From an uncultured Eubacteriales bacterium (lineage in GTDB: Bacteria > Bacillota > Clostridia > Christensenellales > Aristaeellaceae): DNA of 64,000 bases. Of the stretch, positions 27,206-36,466 are shown one piece after another (within the stretch, counting starts at the first letter, position 1; the number at the start of each line of letters is the position of its first letter). The notes beneath the pieces are model-generated. The model did not search any database, was not told the origin of the DNA, and worked only from the letters and a program-made list of their open reading frames with translations. The position numbers and the translations under genes were made by a program. The stretch covers positions 62,001-126,000 of the forward strand of contig CACWHI010000005.1 of NCBI GenBank assembly GCA_902760595.1, read 5' to 3'.

Positions 27206-27958
27206 TCAGTAATCCGGCGCGTACGGCAGTACGGCCACGATCTCATCCTCGATGTAGATGAAGCGGAACAGGCCGCCGATCGAAATGTTGTTCATGAAGT
27301 CGCTGATATTGTACGCCCGCTGCGGCGAGGCCATGGAGCCGTAGTAGAACGCGCAGCTGTCCGTGCAGGCGTAGCGGTAGTGGTCGACCGTCTTGTTGAC
27401 GAAGGTGGACAGATTGCCGTCCGCGTAGGTGACGGTGCCCAGGTCTGCGTCGATATACCATTTGCCGCTTTTCTGGTAAATGTTCTCGATGTATCCCGCC
27501 GAGACGCGCGTCCGGCGGTCGCTGGGGCGGCGCTGCAGGAACACCGTATAAGCGGTGCGTGCGCCGGAGCTGCCGATCACCTCGATCAGCACCTGCTGCG
27601 GATTGTCCGACATCCGGATATAGCTTGACGCGGCTCCGCTGCGCACGATGGCGCCGTTCACGTAGATCGTGGCGTAGGGATCCGCCGCCACCGGGGTAAA
27701 CTGCACCCGGCTGACCCAGCTGGCGACCGTCAGCAGATAGGTGGTCACCGACGGGCTGAAATACTCCGGCAGCATCTTGCCCGTATTGGGGCAGTTGTGC
27801 GTCAGGGAGATCAGCTGCGGACCGCCGTATACCGTTTCCGGCTGAACAGTTTCGCCCCAGTAGTAATCCCCCACGTCCAGCTCTTCATCCGCGACGGCGC
27901 AGGGGACGAATGCCGCAAAGATCAATGAGACAGCCAGCAACAGGGACAGCTTCTTCAT
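27206..27958 (-). CDS. Secreted protein with cadherin-like beta-sandwich domain
   Basis: 250 aa. MKKLSLLLAVSLIFAAFVPC is a signal peptide (possibly cleaved after the Cys-Ala region). Residues ~55-150 show the cadherin-like beta-sandwich pattern of repeated strands around YLLTVASWVSRVQFTPVA and ending in TAYTVFLQRR. The last ~90 residues are not recognised. ATG 27958 is chosen for its GGAGG at 12 bp; the frame runs on to 28033 without a ribosome site. These domains are common in secreted clostridial envelope proteins. Function unknown. Confidence 0.75.
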   Translation of the reverse strand: MKKLSLLLAVSLIFAAFVPCAVADEELDVGDYYWGETVQPETVYGGPQLISLTHNCPNTGKMLPEYFSPSVTTYLLTVASWVSRVQFTPVAADPYATIYVNGAIVRSGAASSYIRMSDNPQQVLIEVIGSSGARTAYTVFLQRRPSDRRTRVSAGYIENIYQKSGKWYIDADLGTVTYADGNLSTFVNKTVDHYRYACTDSCAFYYGSMASPQRAYNISDFMNNISIGGLFRFIYIEDEIVAVLPYAPDY

Positions 27959-28077
27959 CGCGATACCTCCAGTACGATCGAGCCGTACATTATTATAACG
28001 CGCCTCCCCCGCTTTTTTATCCCGATTTAACAATAATTTTGTGTTTTTTAATGCTTTTGTTACATTTTGGAGCGATC

Positions 28078-28765: not shown

Positions 28766-28794
28766 TTGTCTGCGCCGAAAAAGTATGCTATAAT
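28766..28794 (+). promoter_or_regulatory. Promoter of the CotH/DUF4956/VTC operon
   Basis: TTGTCT (28766-28771), 17-bp spacer, perfect TATAAT (28789-28794). The ~85-nt leader that follows is GC-rich and can fold (AGGAC...GTCCT inside CGCGCC...GGCGCG). Confidence 0.75.
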
Positions 28795-28885: not shown

Positions 28886-31800
28886 ATGAGCCGAACCAGC
28901 AGCAGATATAACAAAAAAGAAAGCAAGCTCCTGATGATCGCGGTGCTGGGCGTCGTCCTGGCCGCGATGATCCTGCTGATGCCCAAGGAGCCGGTAGTCA
29001 AGGCCATCAACTCGGTCGGCCAGGGCTCCACCGGCGCCGGGCTTTACCTGAGCGAGATCATGAGCGACAACGCCAGCGCGCTGCCGGACGAAAACGGCGC
29101 GTTCGGCGACTGGCTCGAGGTCTGGAACAGCAGCGATCATCCCATCAGCATGAAAAACATCGGCCTTTCCAACAGGTCGGACAAGATCCAGTTCCTGTTC
29201 CCGGAGATGACGCTGGAGCCGGACGGCCGCGTCATCGTGTTCTGCGACAAGGTGAACCGCGACGATCCCGCCGGCACGCTGCACGCCAAATGCAAACTGT
29301 CCAGTCTCGGCGTCAACGTATACCTGTTTGACCAGAACGGCGTCGCGATCGACCACGCGGAGGTGCCGACGCTGAACGCCGACGAGAGCTACCAGCGCGT
29401 ATCCCCCACCGAGTGGCGCAGGACCGACGAGTACGCGCCCGGGTTTGAAAAGACGAACGATGGGCACGTGGCCTACCTGACCAGCTTCCACGTCGAAGCC
29501 GACGTGCTGATGATCAACGAGGTCATGCCGGTGCCCAAGACCGGCCTGCGCGACGAGGACGGCGAGCTTTCCGACTGGCTGGAGCTGTACAACGCGGGCA
29601 ACGCCACCATCCGCCTGAGCGACCTGGCGCTGAGCGACAACGAGCAGAAGCCCCTGAAATGGTTCTTCCCCGAGGGCGCGGTCATCGAGCCCGGGCAGTA
29701 CTATATCGTCTTCTGCTCCGGCAAGGACAAGATGCAGCAGAACGGCATCCCGCATACCAATTTCCGCCTCTCCGGCGAAGGCGAGACCCTGGTGCTCTCC
29801 ACCCGCGCGGGCGAGCTGGTGGACCGGATCACCGTCCCGAATATCGGCAAGGACGTCTCCTACGCCAAGAACCCCGGCACCCAGATCTGGTCCGTATTCC
29901 AGGTCGCGACCCCGGGGCGTCCCAATAACAGCCAGGGCGTGTCCGACGCGGACCGCTACATGCGGCAGATCAACGAAAGCCAGGTGTACATCACGGAGGT
30001 GCTGGCCTCCTCGGACGCAGTAGCGCCCGCCAACGGCGAGACGCCCTGTGACTGGGTGGAGCTGTATAACGCGGGCACCTCGCCCTTTGACCTCTCCCTG
30101 TGCGGGCTGAGCGACAACCTGGGCTGGCCGCGGAAGTGGCAGTTCCCGATGGGGACCACGATCTACCCGGGCGAATACAAGCTCGTCCGCTGCGATAAGT
30201 CCCCCACCTCCGGCTCCGGGCAGAGCCCGCACACATCCTTTGGCATCACCAAGGCGGGCGGAGAAACCATCACCCTGAGCGATCCGCAGGGACGCGTGCT
30301 GGATAAGCTGTATATCCCCCAGATGCGTACAGACGTGTCCTACGGCCGTTCCCTCGAGACGAACGGTTTTTTTTATTATGACGCGCCGACGCCCGGCCAG
30401 AAAAACGGCGTAGGCTTCGCCGGCTTCAGCCCGACCCCGACCCTGTCCCTGAAGGGCGGCCTGTACGAGGGCAACGTGGTCGTCTCCATCGACGTGCCCG
30501 ACGGCGTCACCGTGCGCTATACCACGGACGGATCCATCCCCACGCTGGAAAACAGCTCCGTCTATACGGTGCCGCTGGCGTTCCAGAATTCCATCGTGCT
30601 GCGCGCCAGGTCCTTCCAGAACGGGCTGCAGCCCTCCGATACCGTCAGCGCGTCCTATATCCTGAACACGTATTTCACGCTCCCGGTCGTCTCCGTGATC
30701 ATCGATCCCGACGAGCTGTACAACGAGAATACCGGCCTCTTCGTCGGCGGTCCGAACCTGGACAAGTCCAGAGGCATCCCCTTCCGCAACTCGATCTACC
30801 GCCAGTTCGGCAAAAACCCGCGCCCGGCCTATATCGAGGTGTTTGAGCAGAACGGCGCCGGCACGGTCATCAGCCAGGGCGTCAAGCTGGCGCTGGGCGG
30901 CGACTACAGCCTGGACATGCCGCAGAAGACGCTGAAGATCCGCGCCCAGGCCAAGTACGGCGAGAAATACTTCGATTACCCGCTGTTCGACGACCGGCCC
31001 TTCACCTACTACAAGTCCTTCAACCTGCGCAACTCCGGCAACGACTGCGTATGGACCCGCCTGTCCGACGGCTTCCAGAGCCAGCTGATCGACCTGCTGG
31101 ATACCGACATCATCCATCTGGCCTTCAAGCCGGTGATCGTCTACATCAACGGCGAGTACTACGGCCACTACAACATGCGCGAGCGCAAGGACCGCTTCTG
31201 CATCGCGCAGTGGGAGGGCCTGGATATGGACCTCGCCGACCAGATCACCATCCTGCGCGCCAGCTACTCCACGGTGCAGGGCAGCAACAAGGAATACCGC
31301 GCCCTGCTGGACCGCGTGAAGGCCTCCTCCCCCGGTAAGAATCCGGCCGACCTGCAGTACATCCTGGATAACGTGGATGTGGACAGCTATTACGATTACC
31401 TGGCCATCGAAATGTTCTTCGGCAATTCCGACATCGGCAACACCATGTTCTATAAGCTGCCGGGACCGGGCCAGAAATGGAAGTGGCTGATCTTCGACCT
31501 GGATTACGGCATGTTCTCCTCCAGCTTCAACAGCCCGAAGTCCTACACCAAGGCCAAGGGCATGGGCGACAAGCTGATCAACAACACGATCTTCCTGAAG
31601 CTGCTGGAAAACGCGGACATGAAGCAGAAATTCCTGGAGCGCCTGGCCTACGTGTACCGCACGCTGACGCCCCAGGTAATGAACGACAAGCTGACAGAGA
31701 TCAAGGCGATCCTGGAGCCTGAGATGCCCATGCACTTCGAGCGCTGGGCGCCCCTCAACGACAAAAAGATCAACTCCGACTCCCCCCTGAGCAAGGACGG

Positions 31801-31963
31801 CGCGCTCGGCTACTGGAACACCCGCATCAACCGTATGCGCGACACCATCAACCGCCGCCACCACTTCCTCTGGGGCTACATCAAGGAGGCGTTCGGCCTC
31901 TCCAACGCGCAGATGCTGGAGCTCTTCGGCGAACAGCCGGCAGACCCTCTGGCCAAGAAATAA
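28886..31963 (+). CDS. Lamin-tail/CotH-kinase surface protein
   Basis: 1025 aa. A single N-terminal membrane helix (residues ~15-32) anchors or exports it. Three lamin-tail domains follow, beginning about 53, 207 and 366 (YLSEIMSDN, MINEVMPVP, YITEVLASS, each followed by a W-x-E-x-Y/W-N motif). A chitobiase-C-like domain is near 540 (RYTTDGSIPT). The CotH domain spans ~595-960, with YGHYNMRERKD near 759 and LIFDLDYGMF near 866, the conserved kinase-like motifs. CotH proteins phosphorylate spore-coat proteins; lamin-tail domains are extracellular adaptors. The substrate here is unknown. First gene of a three-gene operon. Confidence 0.9.
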   Translation: MSRTSSRYNKKESKLLMIAVLGVVLAAMILLMPKEPVVKAINSVGQGSTGAGLYLSEIMSDNASALPDENGAFGDWLEVWNSSDHPISMKNIGLSNRSDKIQFLFPEMTLEPDGRVIVFCDKVNRDDPAGTLHAKCKLSSLGVNVYLFDQNGVAIDHAEVPTLNADESYQRVSPTEWRRTDEYAPGFEKTNDGHVAYLTSFHVEADVLMINEVMPVPKTGLRDEDGELSDWLELYNAGNATIRLSDLALSDNEQKPLKWFFPEGAVIEPGQYYIVFCSGKDKMQQNGIPHTNFRLSGEGETLVLSTRAGELVDRITVPNIGKDVSYAKNPGTQIWSVFQVATPGRPNNSQGVSDADRYMRQINESQVYITEVLASSDAVAPANGETPCDWVELYNAGTSPFDLSLCGLSDNLGWPRKWQFPMGTTIYPGEYKLVRCDKSPTSGSGQSPHTSFGITKAGGETITLSDPQGRVLDKLYIPQMRTDVSYGRSLETNGFFYYDAPTPGQKNGVGFAGFSPTPTLSLKGGLYEGNVVVSIDVPDGVTVRYTTDGSIPTLENSSVYTVPLAFQNSIVLRARSFQNGLQPSDTVSASYILNTYFTLPVVSVIIDPDELYNENTGLFVGGPNLDKSRGIPFRNSIYRQFGKNPRPAYIEVFEQNGAGTVISQGVKLALGGDYSLDMPQKTLKIRAQAKYGEKYFDYPLFDDRPFTYYKSFNLRNSGNDCVWTRLSDGFQSQLIDLLDTDIIHLAFKPVIVYINGEYYGHYNMRERKDRFCIAQWEGLDMDLADQITILRASYSTVQGSNKEYRALLDRVKASSPGKNPADLQYILDNVDVDSYYDYLAIEMFFGNSDIGNTMFYKLPGPGQKWKWLIFDLDYGMFSSSFNSPKSYTKAKGMGDKLINNTIFLKLLENADMKQKFLERLAYVYRTLTPQVMNDKLTEIKAILEPEMPMHFERWAPLNDKKINSDSPLSKDGALGYWNTRINRMRDTINRRHHFLWGYIKEAFGLSNAQMLELFGEQPADPLAKK

Positions 31964-31993
31964 ACAACACTTCATCACGATCAGGAGGAACGT

Positions 31994-32686
31994 ATGGAAA
32001 CCACCAGCTTCAAGGACATCGTCACCAACAACAGATTATCGGACTGGTTCGCCAACCAGCTGAGCAATTTCACCCCCTTCAACGTCGCGCTGGTGCTGTT
32101 CGCCGCGCTGGTGGCGGGCATCATCATCTCCCTGGTCTATAAAAAAACCTACCGGGGCGTGCTGTACAGCCCGAATTTCTCCCTGACGCTGATCATGCTG
32201 ACGCTGGTCACCGCGCCGGTCGTCATGGCCATCGGCTCCAACGTGGCGCTGTCCATGGGCATGGTCGGCGCGCTGTCCATCGTGCGCTTCCGCACCGCCG
32301 TCAAGGAGCCCCTGGATACCGTATACATGTTCTGGGCCATCACCATGGGCATCCTGCTCGGCGCGGGCCAGTACATCATCTCCCTGGTCGTGGTCATCAT
32401 GATCGCGGTGATCCTGCTGGTGCTCTCCTTCGTGCATTTCCGCAACCCCAACAGCTATCTGCTGGTGATGCACTATGACGAGTACGCAGAGGGCGACATC
32501 GAGGCCGAGCTGCGCCGCAGCGCGCGCTATAACCGCCTGCGCTCCAAGACTGTTACCCGCGCCGGCGCTGAAATGACCTATGAAGTCAGGATGGATCAGA
32601 AGGCGGACCTGGTGGGCCGCATGCTGGATATCGAGGGCGTGCACGACGCGACCCTGGTCGCCATGCAGACCGAGACCGGTGCGTAA
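31994..32686 (+). CDS. DUF4956 integral membrane protein
   Basis: 230 aa. About four membrane helices lie between residues ~25 and 155, followed by a ~75-residue soluble C-terminal domain. The conserved core is GALSIVRFRTAVKEPLDTVY between helices, typical of DUF4956, whose biochemical role is unknown. An AGGAGG-type ribosome site (31983-31988) precedes ATG 31994. It lies 30 bp after the CotH gene and 2 bp before the VTC gene; the same gene set recurs in other Bacillota. Confidence 0.88.
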   Translation: METTSFKDIVTNNRLSDWFANQLSNFTPFNVALVLFAALVAGIIISLVYKKTYRGVLYSPNFSLTLIMLTLVTAPVVMAIGSNVALSMGMVGALSIVRFRTAVKEPLDTVYMFWAITMGILLGAGQYIISLVVVIMIAVILLVLSFVHFRNPNSYLLVMHYDEYAEGDIEAELRRSARYNRLRSKTVTRAGAEMTYEVRMDQKADLVGRMLDIEGVHDATLVAMQTETGA

Positions 32687-32688
32687 GC

Positions 32689-33396
32689 ATGGCCATCCCT
32701 CTCAGGCATGAGCTGAAATTCCTGCTGAGTCCGCTGCAGGTGGACGTGCTCCGGCGCAACCTGCTGCCCGTGCTCAGCCTGGACCAACACGCCGCCAGGA
32801 ACGGAGGGCAGTATTCCATCCGCTCCCTCTATTTCGATACGGCTGAGGACGACGCGCTGTACGACAAAATGAGCGGTATCTATTACCGCCAGAAGTACCG
32901 CATCCGCATCTACAATTATTCGGACGCCGCCATCTTCCTGGAATGCAAGAGCAAGTTCGGCGACCTCATTTCCAAGCGCTCGCTGAAGATCCCCCGCGAC
33001 CTGGCCGAGCAGCTGATCGCCGGCGACCCGGACGGGCTGGAAAAGACCCATTACGGCCTGCTGAGCGACGTGTACCGGGAAATGCGCACCCGGCTTTTGC
33101 ATCCGGTGGTCCTCGTGGACTACGACCGGGAAGCCTATCTGCATCCCGCGGAAACGGTGCGCATCACCTTTGACAAGAACCTGCACACGGGCCTGGGCAG
33201 CATCGACCTGTTCAATCCGTACGTGCCCACCGTTTCCCCCTTCGACGAGCCGTGGACGATCCTCGAGGTCAAGTATGACCGCGTGCTCCCGCCCTATATC
33301 GCAGAGGTGCTCAGCTGGGCCGTGCCCGAGGCCGCCCGCAGCGCCGTGTCCAAATACACCTGGTGCAGGCGCTTCGAGCGGAAGGACGACATCTGA
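32689..33396 (+). CDS. VTC-domain polyphosphate polymerase
   Basis: 235 aa, just a VTC catalytic tunnel domain with no SPX or membrane part. The basic and acidic tunnel residues are readable: RHELKF at the start, YSIRSLYFDT, YRQKYRIRIYN, FLECKSKFG, the Lys in ILEVKYDRVLP and SKYTWCRR at the end. Yeast VTC4 polymerises ATP gamma-phosphate into polyphosphate while moving it through the membrane. The start is 2 bp after DUF4956, so both are made together; DUF4956 may supply the membrane element (inference). Confidence 0.9.
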   Translation: MAIPLRHELKFLLSPLQVDVLRRNLLPVLSLDQHAARNGGQYSIRSLYFDTAEDDALYDKMSGIYYRQKYRIRIYNYSDAAIFLECKSKFGDLISKRSLKIPRDLAEQLIAGDPDGLEKTHYGLLSDVYREMRTRLLHPVVLVDYDREAYLHPAETVRITFDKNLHTGLGSIDLFNPYVPTVSPFDEPWTILEVKYDRVLPPYIAEVLSWAVPEAARSAVSKYTWCRRFERKDDI

Positions 33397-35385: not shown

Positions 35386-35524
35386 TACTAATATCTGGTA
35401 AAAATGCTAAAAAATTGTGCGTGGATTTGGCGTTTGATCAAGGAACCCGCACGAAAGCGTACCCGTTGGTACGGTGAGGGTGGGTGACGCTGAGCAAGCG
35501 TCAAAGACACGTAGAGATTAGTAT
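35385..35524 (+). repeat. Long palindromic repeat element, copy 2 (21-bp deletion)
   Basis: Same orientation as copy 1 and nearly identical over the left arm and centre. It lacks 21 bp of the right arm (after GACACGT) and one loop base (CGTT for CGTTA). Its last base is the last base of the ppx stop codon. Confidence 0.85.
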
Positions 35525-36438
35525 TATTGCCCGAGCAGCTCCCACGCCAGGCCGTGGCGCAGGCCGCGGTCGCTGACGGTCAGGGAAGCGGTGCCGAAGC
35601 GCTCGAGGATGGCCTTCACGATACACGCTCCGGCCAGGAGCACATCGGCCCGCTTTGGCTGCACGCCGGGGATCTGCCGGCGCTCCTCCAGCGTTTTTGA
35701 CTCGAAATCGCGCAGCTGCCATTCCACATCCCCGGAAGTCAGGACGGAACCGTGGACGACCGCCGGATCGTACGTTTTCAGCCGGTGCTTCACCGCACTC
35801 ATGCCGGTGACGGCCCCGCCGATGCCGATCAGCCGCTCCGCGCTGCCGCCGACACCCGCGTTCATGAGCTCCGCCCGGATCTGAGAGAGGGCGGCGTCCA
35901 CACTGCCGGGCTTCACCGGATCATCCGGGAAGTACGCTTCCGTGATCCGGTTCACGCCCAGGTCGATGCTGAAACGCTTCTCCAGCGTTCCGCCGTGTCC
36001 ATAGATGAATTCCGTGCTGCCGCCGCCCGTATCGAAGATCACGAGGCGGCCGTTTCCCACATCGAGTCCCGTCAGCACGGACCGGTAGCTGAGCCGGGCC
36101 TCCTCTTCTCCGGGGAGGATCTGTACGCCGAGGCCGCAGAGCGCCCGGACCCGGGCTGTGAAATCCGCGCTGTTCTCCGCGCTGCGCAGCGCCATGGTGC
36201 CGACAGCCTCGACCCTCTCCGCGCCGAGGGCCTCCGCCCGCCCGGAGAAGCGGCTCACCGCCTGCGCCGTGCGTTCCAGCGCGTCCGCGCCGATACGCCC
36301 CGTGCGGCTCAGCCCTTCTCCCAGGGACGTGATGTCATTGGCGTCCAGCAGCGTGGAAACGCTCCCATCCGCGCGCTTTTCGCCCACGAAGCATTTGACG
36401 GATTTTGATCCGATATCGATCACCGCGACCCTGCGCAT
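35524..36438 (-). CDS. Ppx/GppA-family exopolyphosphatase
   Basis: 304 aa ASKHA-fold phosphatase, the short form of the family. Motifs are VAVIDIGSKSVKCFVGE (phosphate 1), FDTGGGSTEFIYG (phosphate 2) and IGIGGAVTGMSA (adenosine region). Members hydrolyse polyphosphate and/or pppGpp. It ends exactly at palindromic copy 2 and lies 2 kb from the VTC polymerase. ATG 36438 is used; GTG 36441 one codon earlier is equally possible with GGAAGG upstream. Confidence 0.88.
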   Translation of the reverse strand: MRRVAVIDIGSKSVKCFVGEKRADGSVSTLLDANDITSLGEGLSRTGRIGADALERTAQAVSRFSGRAEALGAERVEAVGTMALRSAENSADFTARVRALCGLGVQILPGEEEARLSYRSVLTGLDVGNGRLVIFDTGGGSTEFIYGHGGTLEKRFSIDLGVNRITEAYFPDDPVKPGSVDAALSQIRAELMNAGVGGSAERLIGIGGAVTGMSAVKHRLKTYDPAVVHGSVLTSGDVEWQLRDFESKTLEERRQIPGVQPKRADVLLAGACIVKAILERFGTASLTVSDRGLRHGLAWELLGQ

Positions 36439-36466
36439 CACCCTGATCTGCCTTCCTTCAAAGATG

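What the first reader, a model, noticed from the sequence alone, without database searches (positions are those of the whole stretch)
28886..33396. CotH kinase / DUF4956 / VTC polymerase operon: a possible surface phosphate system
A secreted or anchored CotH-kinase protein with three lamin-tail domains, a DUF4956 membrane protein and a soluble-looking VTC polymerase share one promoter and 2-30 bp gaps. VTC needs a membrane channel in yeast; DUF4956 could supply it, and CotH or lamin-tail parts could display or modify the product. The joint function is not described to my knowledge.
Basis: partly seen in the sequence, partly recalled or inferred. Interest (0 to 1): 0.65.

Follow-up and report, generated by a model that had tools for sequence, protein, structure and literature searches.

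The report
VTC–DUF4956 core with exported CotH kinase
This rumen-type Clostridia genome carries a three-gene operon in which a probable polyphosphate-making enzyme and a membrane protein that never occurs without it (in 299 related genomes) travel with a kinase-like protein anchored outside the cell, which suggests that these bacteria make or move phosphate polymers at the surface; similar genes are known beside one biofilm-polysaccharide cluster, but this copy and most others lie outside it.

Summary
An anchored CotH-kinase protein with three lamin-tail domains (28886-31963), a DUF4956 membrane protein (31994-32686) and a VTC protein (32689-33396) form a tight operon. The pairing is not chance. 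In 299 genomes of the phylum, VTC and DUF4956 occur in exactly the same 46, adjacent at 53 of 55 VTC loci. Exported CotH occurs in 36 of these 46 genomes and in 1 of 253 others; cytosolic spore-type CotH shows no such link. At some loci CotH is replaced by the acid-polysaccharide-binding beta-helix Cthe_2159. All Vtc4 tunnel residues and the CotH catalytic Asp pair are retained. DUF4956 is MgtC-like with a C-terminal ACT domain.

Best reading: a polyphosphate synthase (VTC) coupled to a membrane partner (DUF4956), serving an extracellular phosphate-handling effector (CotH). Translocation through DUF4956 and the effector's substrate are inferred, not shown; a fused-chain fold was inconclusive.

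It is not wholly new: cotH-PPP-DUF4956 is described as accessory to Gram-positive Pel clusters (PMC7112168), with mutants in Streptococcus intermedius (PMC12345266). That paper reports failing to find the synteny outside Pel loci; this window and most loci studied here contradict that.

The parts
28766..28794 (+). sigma-70-like promoter TTGTCT-17-TATAAT with extended -10
   Evidence: 10 of 12 matches; 2 sites found in the region, 1.2 expected by chance
28886..31963 (+). membrane-anchored extracellular CotH-kinase protein: N-terminal anchor, three lamin-tail domains, CHB_HEX_C/Fn3-associated domain, C-terminal CotH kinase domain
   Evidence: anchors of its relatives
30899..31870 (+). CotH kinase domain (residues 672-995); invariant catalytic-type Asp849 and Asp871, 22 apart (A6 positions 264 and 286)
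   Evidence: profile of 21 relatives hits B. cereus CotH 5jd9, E 5e-32
31994..32686 (+). DUF4956 membrane protein: five predicted membrane helices plus a C-terminal ACT/ferredoxin-like domain; invariant RFR motif (R98-F99-R100)
32689..33396 (+). VTC (polyphosphate polymerase, triphosphate-tunnel) protein with R71, R73 and E193 equivalent to yeast Vtc4 R264, R266 and E426

Best explanation
The operon encodes a surface phosphate module. VTC, in the cytosol, makes inorganic polyphosphate from ATP. DUF4956 is its dedicated membrane partner: it docks or regulates VTC through its ACT domain and probably passes or controls the nascent polyanion at the membrane. The anchored CotH protein outside the cell is the effector: a kinase-fold enzyme that modifies or binds a surface or matrix component, using or responding to the phosphate system. 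In other species Cthe_2159, which binds acidic polysaccharides, takes the effector's place. Shown here: the near-obligate pairing, the retained active sites, the export signal of CotH, the swap of the third gene. Inferred: polymerase activity, passage through DUF4956, CotH activity and its target.
For: VTC and DUF4956 are in the same 46 of 299 genomes and adjacent at 53 of 55 VTC loci; also in the same three of 14 named control genomes. At 78 of the 80 named DUF4956 loci a VTC gene is found nearby; the two exceptions, L124 and L137, are cut off at a contig end. All Vtc4 tunnel residues are kept and are invariant or nearly so in 32 bacterial proteins; R264/R266/E426 are the triple used to inactivate Vtc4 (PMC9911596), and the fold search ranks Vtc4 first (3g3r, E 9e-12). 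Exported CotH is in 36/46 VTC+ genomes against 1/253 VTC- genomes (p 4e-36), whereas cytosolic spore-type CotH shows no significant link (2/46 against 2/253, p 0.11). The CotH/Cthe_2159 partner changes at least 7 times on the VTC+DUF4956 tree. The same trio is on plasmids of Pseudobutyrivibrio (inside a polysaccharide cluster) and Planococcus, and by profile in Nonomuraea and Enterococcus.
Against: No bacterial VTC of this family is known to me to have been assayed. The window's genome also has PPK1, so VTC is not its only candidate polyP synthase. DUF4956 shows no relation to the known VTC channel; its membrane part had no informative structural match, and the fused-chain model did not place the two domains. 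In S. intermedius the VTC mutant had no reported effect on Pel or aggregation, whereas the DUF4956 and CotH mutants did (PMC12345266). DUF4956 homologues on Hymenobacter and Sinorhizobium plasmids have no detectable VTC within about 5 kb.
Confidence: 0.5

Rival explanations
1. The cassette is a regulatory accessory of exopolysaccharide synthesis (as proposed for Pel): CotH phosphorylates or binds a component of the synthase or the matrix, and polyP is incidental.
For: Described next to pelDEADAFG in streptococci, clostridia and bifidobacteria (PMC7112168); mutants of DUF4956 and CotH change Pel level and aggregation (PMC12345266). PelG lies beside 5 of 133 DUF4956 loci, and other glycosyltransferase clusters hold the trio.
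Against: No PelG found in the window's genome; PelG in only 2 of 46 VTC+ genomes against 9 of 253 others, no association. A glycosyltransferase or PelG found with the few probes used lies near only 10 of 133 loci.
Confidence: 0.22
2. An intracellular phosphate-storage or Mg/phosphate-homeostasis unit: VTC stores polyP in the cytosol, MgtC-like DUF4956 senses metabolites through its ACT domain, and the CotH gene is a passenger.
For: DUF4956 matches MgtC weakly (E 3e-4, below cut-off) and MgtC's C-terminal domain by fold; an OmpR-type two-component system is near 52 of 128 loci; the second copy of the pair in this genome has a histidine kinase but no CotH.
Against: Does not explain why exported CotH, of all families, follows the pair (36/46 against 1/253), nor why the swap partner Cthe_2159 is a secreted-type polysaccharide binder.
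Confidence: 0.15
3. The VTC protein has another triphosphate-tunnel activity (triphosphatase, nucleotide cyclisation, or phosphate transfer to a sugar or lipid) rather than polyP synthesis.
For: The tunnel fold is catalytically diverse (one search lists triphosphatases and cyclases further down); PPK1 is also present in this genome.
Against: Sequence and fold matches are best to Vtc4, with every Vtc4 tunnel residue examined kept.
Confidence: 0.12
4. Chance adjacency of three unrelated genes.
For: None found.
Confidence: 0.01

Closest known systems
cotH-PPP-DUF4956(-DUF4832) accessory genes of Gram-positive pelDEADAFG clusters (PMC7112168; SIR_1592-1594 in S. intermedius, PMC12345266)
   Same: The same three protein families, contiguous; CotH exported, DUF4956 with MgtC-like membrane part plus ACT domain, VTC/PPP protein.
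   Different: Here no PelG was found in the genome, the gene order is CotH>DUF4956>VTC, and CotH has three lamin-tail domains; it shows that the trio exists outside Pel loci, which PMC12345266 reports not finding.
Yeast VTC complex (Vtc4/Vtc3/Vtc1)
   Same: Catalytic tunnel domain with the same residues; pairing of a tunnel polymerase with a membrane protein.
   Different: No SPX domain; the membrane partner is DUF4956 (MgtC-like with ACT) instead of the three-helix Vtc-type membrane domain; an extra extracellular CotH protein.
Spore-coat kinase CotH (B. subtilis, B. cereus)
   Same: Kinase domain and catalytic Asp pair.
   Different: Membrane-anchored and extracellular, lamin-tail domains, in an operon with VTC and DUF4956.
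C. perfringens NELoc-2 VTC/'tubulin'/CotH genes (PMC2879425)
   Same: VTC and CotH clustered, with a HEAT protein and a chitin-synthase-like glycosyltransferase; the 222-226 aa 'tubulin/FtsZ' neighbours are probably DUF4956 (not checked).
   Different: Two VTC copies, different order, next to a polysaccharide synthase.

Membership tests
VTC polyphosphate polymerase (PF09359) | score above Pfam cut-off | tested here: met
   131 bits, cut-off 23
VTC polyphosphate polymerase (PF09359) | tunnel and catalytic residues of Vtc4 (R196, K200, R264, R266, K281, K294, R361, R373, E426, K428, K458) | tested here: met
   window R6, K10, R71, R73, K87, K96, R147, R158, E193, K195, K222 align one to one
VTC polyphosphate polymerase (PF09359) | ATP-dependent polyP synthesis | not testable with these tools
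   needs enzyme assay
Eukaryotic VTC complex | SPX sensor domain and Vtc1-type membrane domain | tested here: not met
   the VTC protein has only the VTC domain; DUF4956 matches PF16316 and weakly MgtC, no Vtc1-type domain listed
CotH kinase (PF08757) | CotH domain with catalytic Asp pair | tested here: met
   E 9e-31; D849/D871 invariant; profile hits 5jd9
CotH kinase (PF08757) | protein kinase activity | not testable with these tools
   needs assay
MgtC | MgtC domain above cut-off | tested here: not met
   21.8 bits, cut-off 31.4
MgtC | C-terminal ACT-like domain like MgtC's | tested here: met
   best Foldseek match 2lqj, E 4.5e-3; Z 9.9 but tied with unrelated ACT and ferredoxin-like folds, so fold-level only
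Pel accessory cassette | cotH, PPP and DUF4956 contiguous | tested here: met
Pel accessory cassette | contiguous with pelDEADAFG | tested here: not met
   neighbours are QueH and SufCB; no PelG in the genome (genome 91.7% complete)

The most novel reading that the evidence does not exclude
VTC-DUF4956 exports polyphosphate, and that polymer is the phosphate donor for exported CotH kinases, which work where there is little or no ATP. This would explain why exported CotH is almost confined to genomes with VTC-DUF4956 while cytosolic spore-coat CotH is not.
Probability: 0.12. Interest if true: 0.85.

Novelty: new variant of a known kind. Interest (0 to 1): 0.52.

Why it matters
VTC-type polyP synthesis is studied almost only in eukaryotes, and extracellular bacterial kinases have an unsolved donor problem. 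A VTC-DUF4956 pair without exceptions in the sample, followed by exported but apparently not spore-type CotH, names the missing membrane partner for bacterial VTC and gives a directly testable link between polyphosphate and surface or matrix phosphorylation. It also corrects the view that the trio belongs to Pel loci.

Tried and rejected
A DUF4956 N-terminal motif (FxDIFKSSFLE) as a CotH-docking signature: it follows clade, not partner. Co-fold by a natural read-through of DUF4956 and VTC (L142, stop codons read as Gly): domains confident, placement not (pTM 0.52), so neither support nor refutation. Fold search for the DUF4956 membrane helices: only the ACT domain matched; no known channel was listed, which is inconclusive. 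VTC alignment as collection query: not conserved enough. A second 250-genome draw turned out to be nested in the first, so it is no replicate. PPK1 and VTC do not exclude each other (PPK1 in 13 of 46 VTC+ genomes against 30 of 253 others). Rfam: no RNA family in the window.

Full report
What is there. Three genes on the + strand at 28886-33396 encode a CotH-kinase protein, a DUF4956 protein and a VTC protein, 30 and 2 bp apart, confirmed by Pfam. A promoter-like site precedes the first gene and an AGGAGG ribosome-binding site precedes the second. Upstream is QueH, 145 bp away; downstream SufC, 235 bp away. In the two nearest relatives the flanks are kept in part (L117: QueH and SufCB; L118: SufCB), but in some twenty further relatives only the block persists, with CotH at 40-74% identity. 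So the block is the unit. The window lies in a 2.67 Mb Clostridia-like genome, 91.7% complete; the nearest named relatives are mostly ruminant-gut Clostridia assemblies.

Is it more than chance? In 299 genomes of the phylum, DUF4956 was found in 46, VTC in 46, and they are the same 46. The p-value of 3e-55 ignores relatedness; by genus each family is in 35 of 215. Of 55 VTC loci, 53 have DUF4956 beside them on the same strand; at the other two (G062:C52, at a contig end, and G270:C23, a short VTC match of 501 bp) no DUF4956 was found. Among 80 named DUF4956 loci from a separate collection, all but the two whose contig ends too early (L124, L137) have VTC nearby. In 14 named control genomes the two families again ring in the same three: Bacteroides ihuae, Corynebacterium glutamicum, Methanosarcina acetivorans. 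Exceptions exist outside the phylum: DUF4956 relatives on Hymenobacter and Sinorhizobium plasmids have no VTC within the roughly 5 kb searched on each side.

CotH. 41 of 299 genomes have a CotH domain; 37 of these are in the VTC+ set. By hydropathy of the N-terminus, 87 of 90 complete CotH proteins in the VTC-DUF4956 neighbourhoods carry an anchor or signal, against 0 of 128 VTC proteins. The CotH in the four VTC-negative genomes are two of 361-364 aa without a signal, like spore-coat CotH, one lipoprotein-like protein (G072), and one doubtful fragment below cut-off. Counting exported CotH, 36 of 46 VTC+ genomes have it against 1 of 253 others; cytosolic CotH shows 2 of 46 against 2 of 253. 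The export calls rest on hydropathy only.

The third gene varies. Of 128 loci with the VTC-DUF4956 pair, 90 have CotH, 18 Cthe_2159 and 20 neither within 4.5 kb (a few genomes are sampled twice). Cthe_2159 is a beta-helix protein that binds cellulose and polygalacturonic acid (PMC6712302). On a tree of VTC plus DUF4956 the partner changes at least 7 times (12-18 in shuffles), and the order of the core flips 4 times. An OmpR-type two-component system is close to 52 loci. Polysaccharide genes accompany some loci: PelG at five, a chitin-synthase-like GT2 with a HEAT protein at L068 and on a Planococcus plasmid, and a glycosyltransferase/pyruvyl-transferase cluster on a Pseudobutyrivibrio plasmid. 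The window locus has none next to it.

Active sites. The VTC profile hits yeast Vtc4 (3g3q, E 7e-21) and the model's fold ranks Vtc4 first. Window R71, R73 and E193 align with Vtc4 R264, R266 and E426, the triple mutated to inactivate the yeast complex (PMC9911596); R264/R266 are also cited as essential in PMC8749416. All three are invariant in 32 bacterial VTC proteins. The CotH domain keeps two Asp 22 residues apart (D849, D871); B. subtilis D228 is the catalytic residue mutated in PMC7821199, its partner D251 being from memory. DUF4956 has an invariant RFR motif at the end of its third predicted helix; its C-terminal domain is ACT-like, with MgtC's as best Foldseek match.

How it may work. 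Yeast VTC makes polyP in the cytosol and feeds it into a basic membrane channel (PMC9911596). The bacterial pair has the same enzyme and a different, dedicated membrane protein with conserved arginines on what the positive-inside rule makes the cytoplasmic side (inference). That makes coupling of synthesis to the membrane likely and translocation possible. An exported kinase-fold protein as usual companion, with an acid-polysaccharide binder as its substitute, points to a target outside the cell. A fused-chain prediction gave no confident placement, so the complex is not shown.

Against what is known. Whitfield et al. (PMC7112168) described cotH, PPP, DUF4956 and DUF4832 as accessory to Gram-positive Pel clusters. 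In S. intermedius, deletion of the DUF4956 and CotH genes lowers aggregation and changes Pel levels, while no such effect is reported for deletion of the VTC gene; the authors fail to find the trio outside Pel loci (PMC12345266). Here the window's genome has no PelG and PelG shows no association with VTC, so the trio is a wider module that some Pel clusters have taken in.

Limits. One sample of 299 genomes, no phylogenetic correction, many MAG-quality genomes, no biochemical data. The window's genome also holds PPK1, so polyP production in a mutant must be tested in that background.

Noticed in passing
L103 8347-10970 (G000:C34, same genome): Second VTC-DUF4956 pair in the same genome, preceded by a short ORF that looks like a degenerate receiver (no Pfam match) and a histidine kinase, without CotH; VTC 28% and DUF4956 16% identical to the window copies.
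   Followed up: partly
L203-L207 (G000 contigs 35, 59, 47, 8, 46): Seven further CotH proteins in the window's genome away from VTC, all with a signal or anchor by hydropathy, two of the contigs (C35, C59) with tandem pairs.
   Followed up: partly
35524-36441 (-): Ppx/GppA phosphatase (possible polyP or pppGpp hydrolase) just downstream of the Suf genes on the other strand.
   Followed up: no
27206-28033 (-): Probably secreted Cadherin-like beta-sandwich protein upstream of QueH.
   Followed up: no
PMC2879425, C. perfringens NELoc-2 (no window coordinates): The 222 and 226 aa genes annotated 'tubulin/FtsZ' beside each VTC gene are probably DUF4956 proteins; sequence not checked.
   Followed up: no
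L068 2747-10275, L223 5389-12824: A recurring cluster VTC-DUF4956-CotH, ~700 aa unknown protein, HEAT protein, chitin-synthase-like GT2, also like NELoc-2: a second polysaccharide context besides Pel.
   Followed up: partly
L161 9974-14198: A Bathyarchaeota-labelled contig has DUF4956, VTC and, on the other strand, Cthe_2159.
   Followed up: no
L197 (G072): The single exported CotH found in a VTC-negative genome of the sample; lipoprotein-like, 460 aa.
   Followed up: partly
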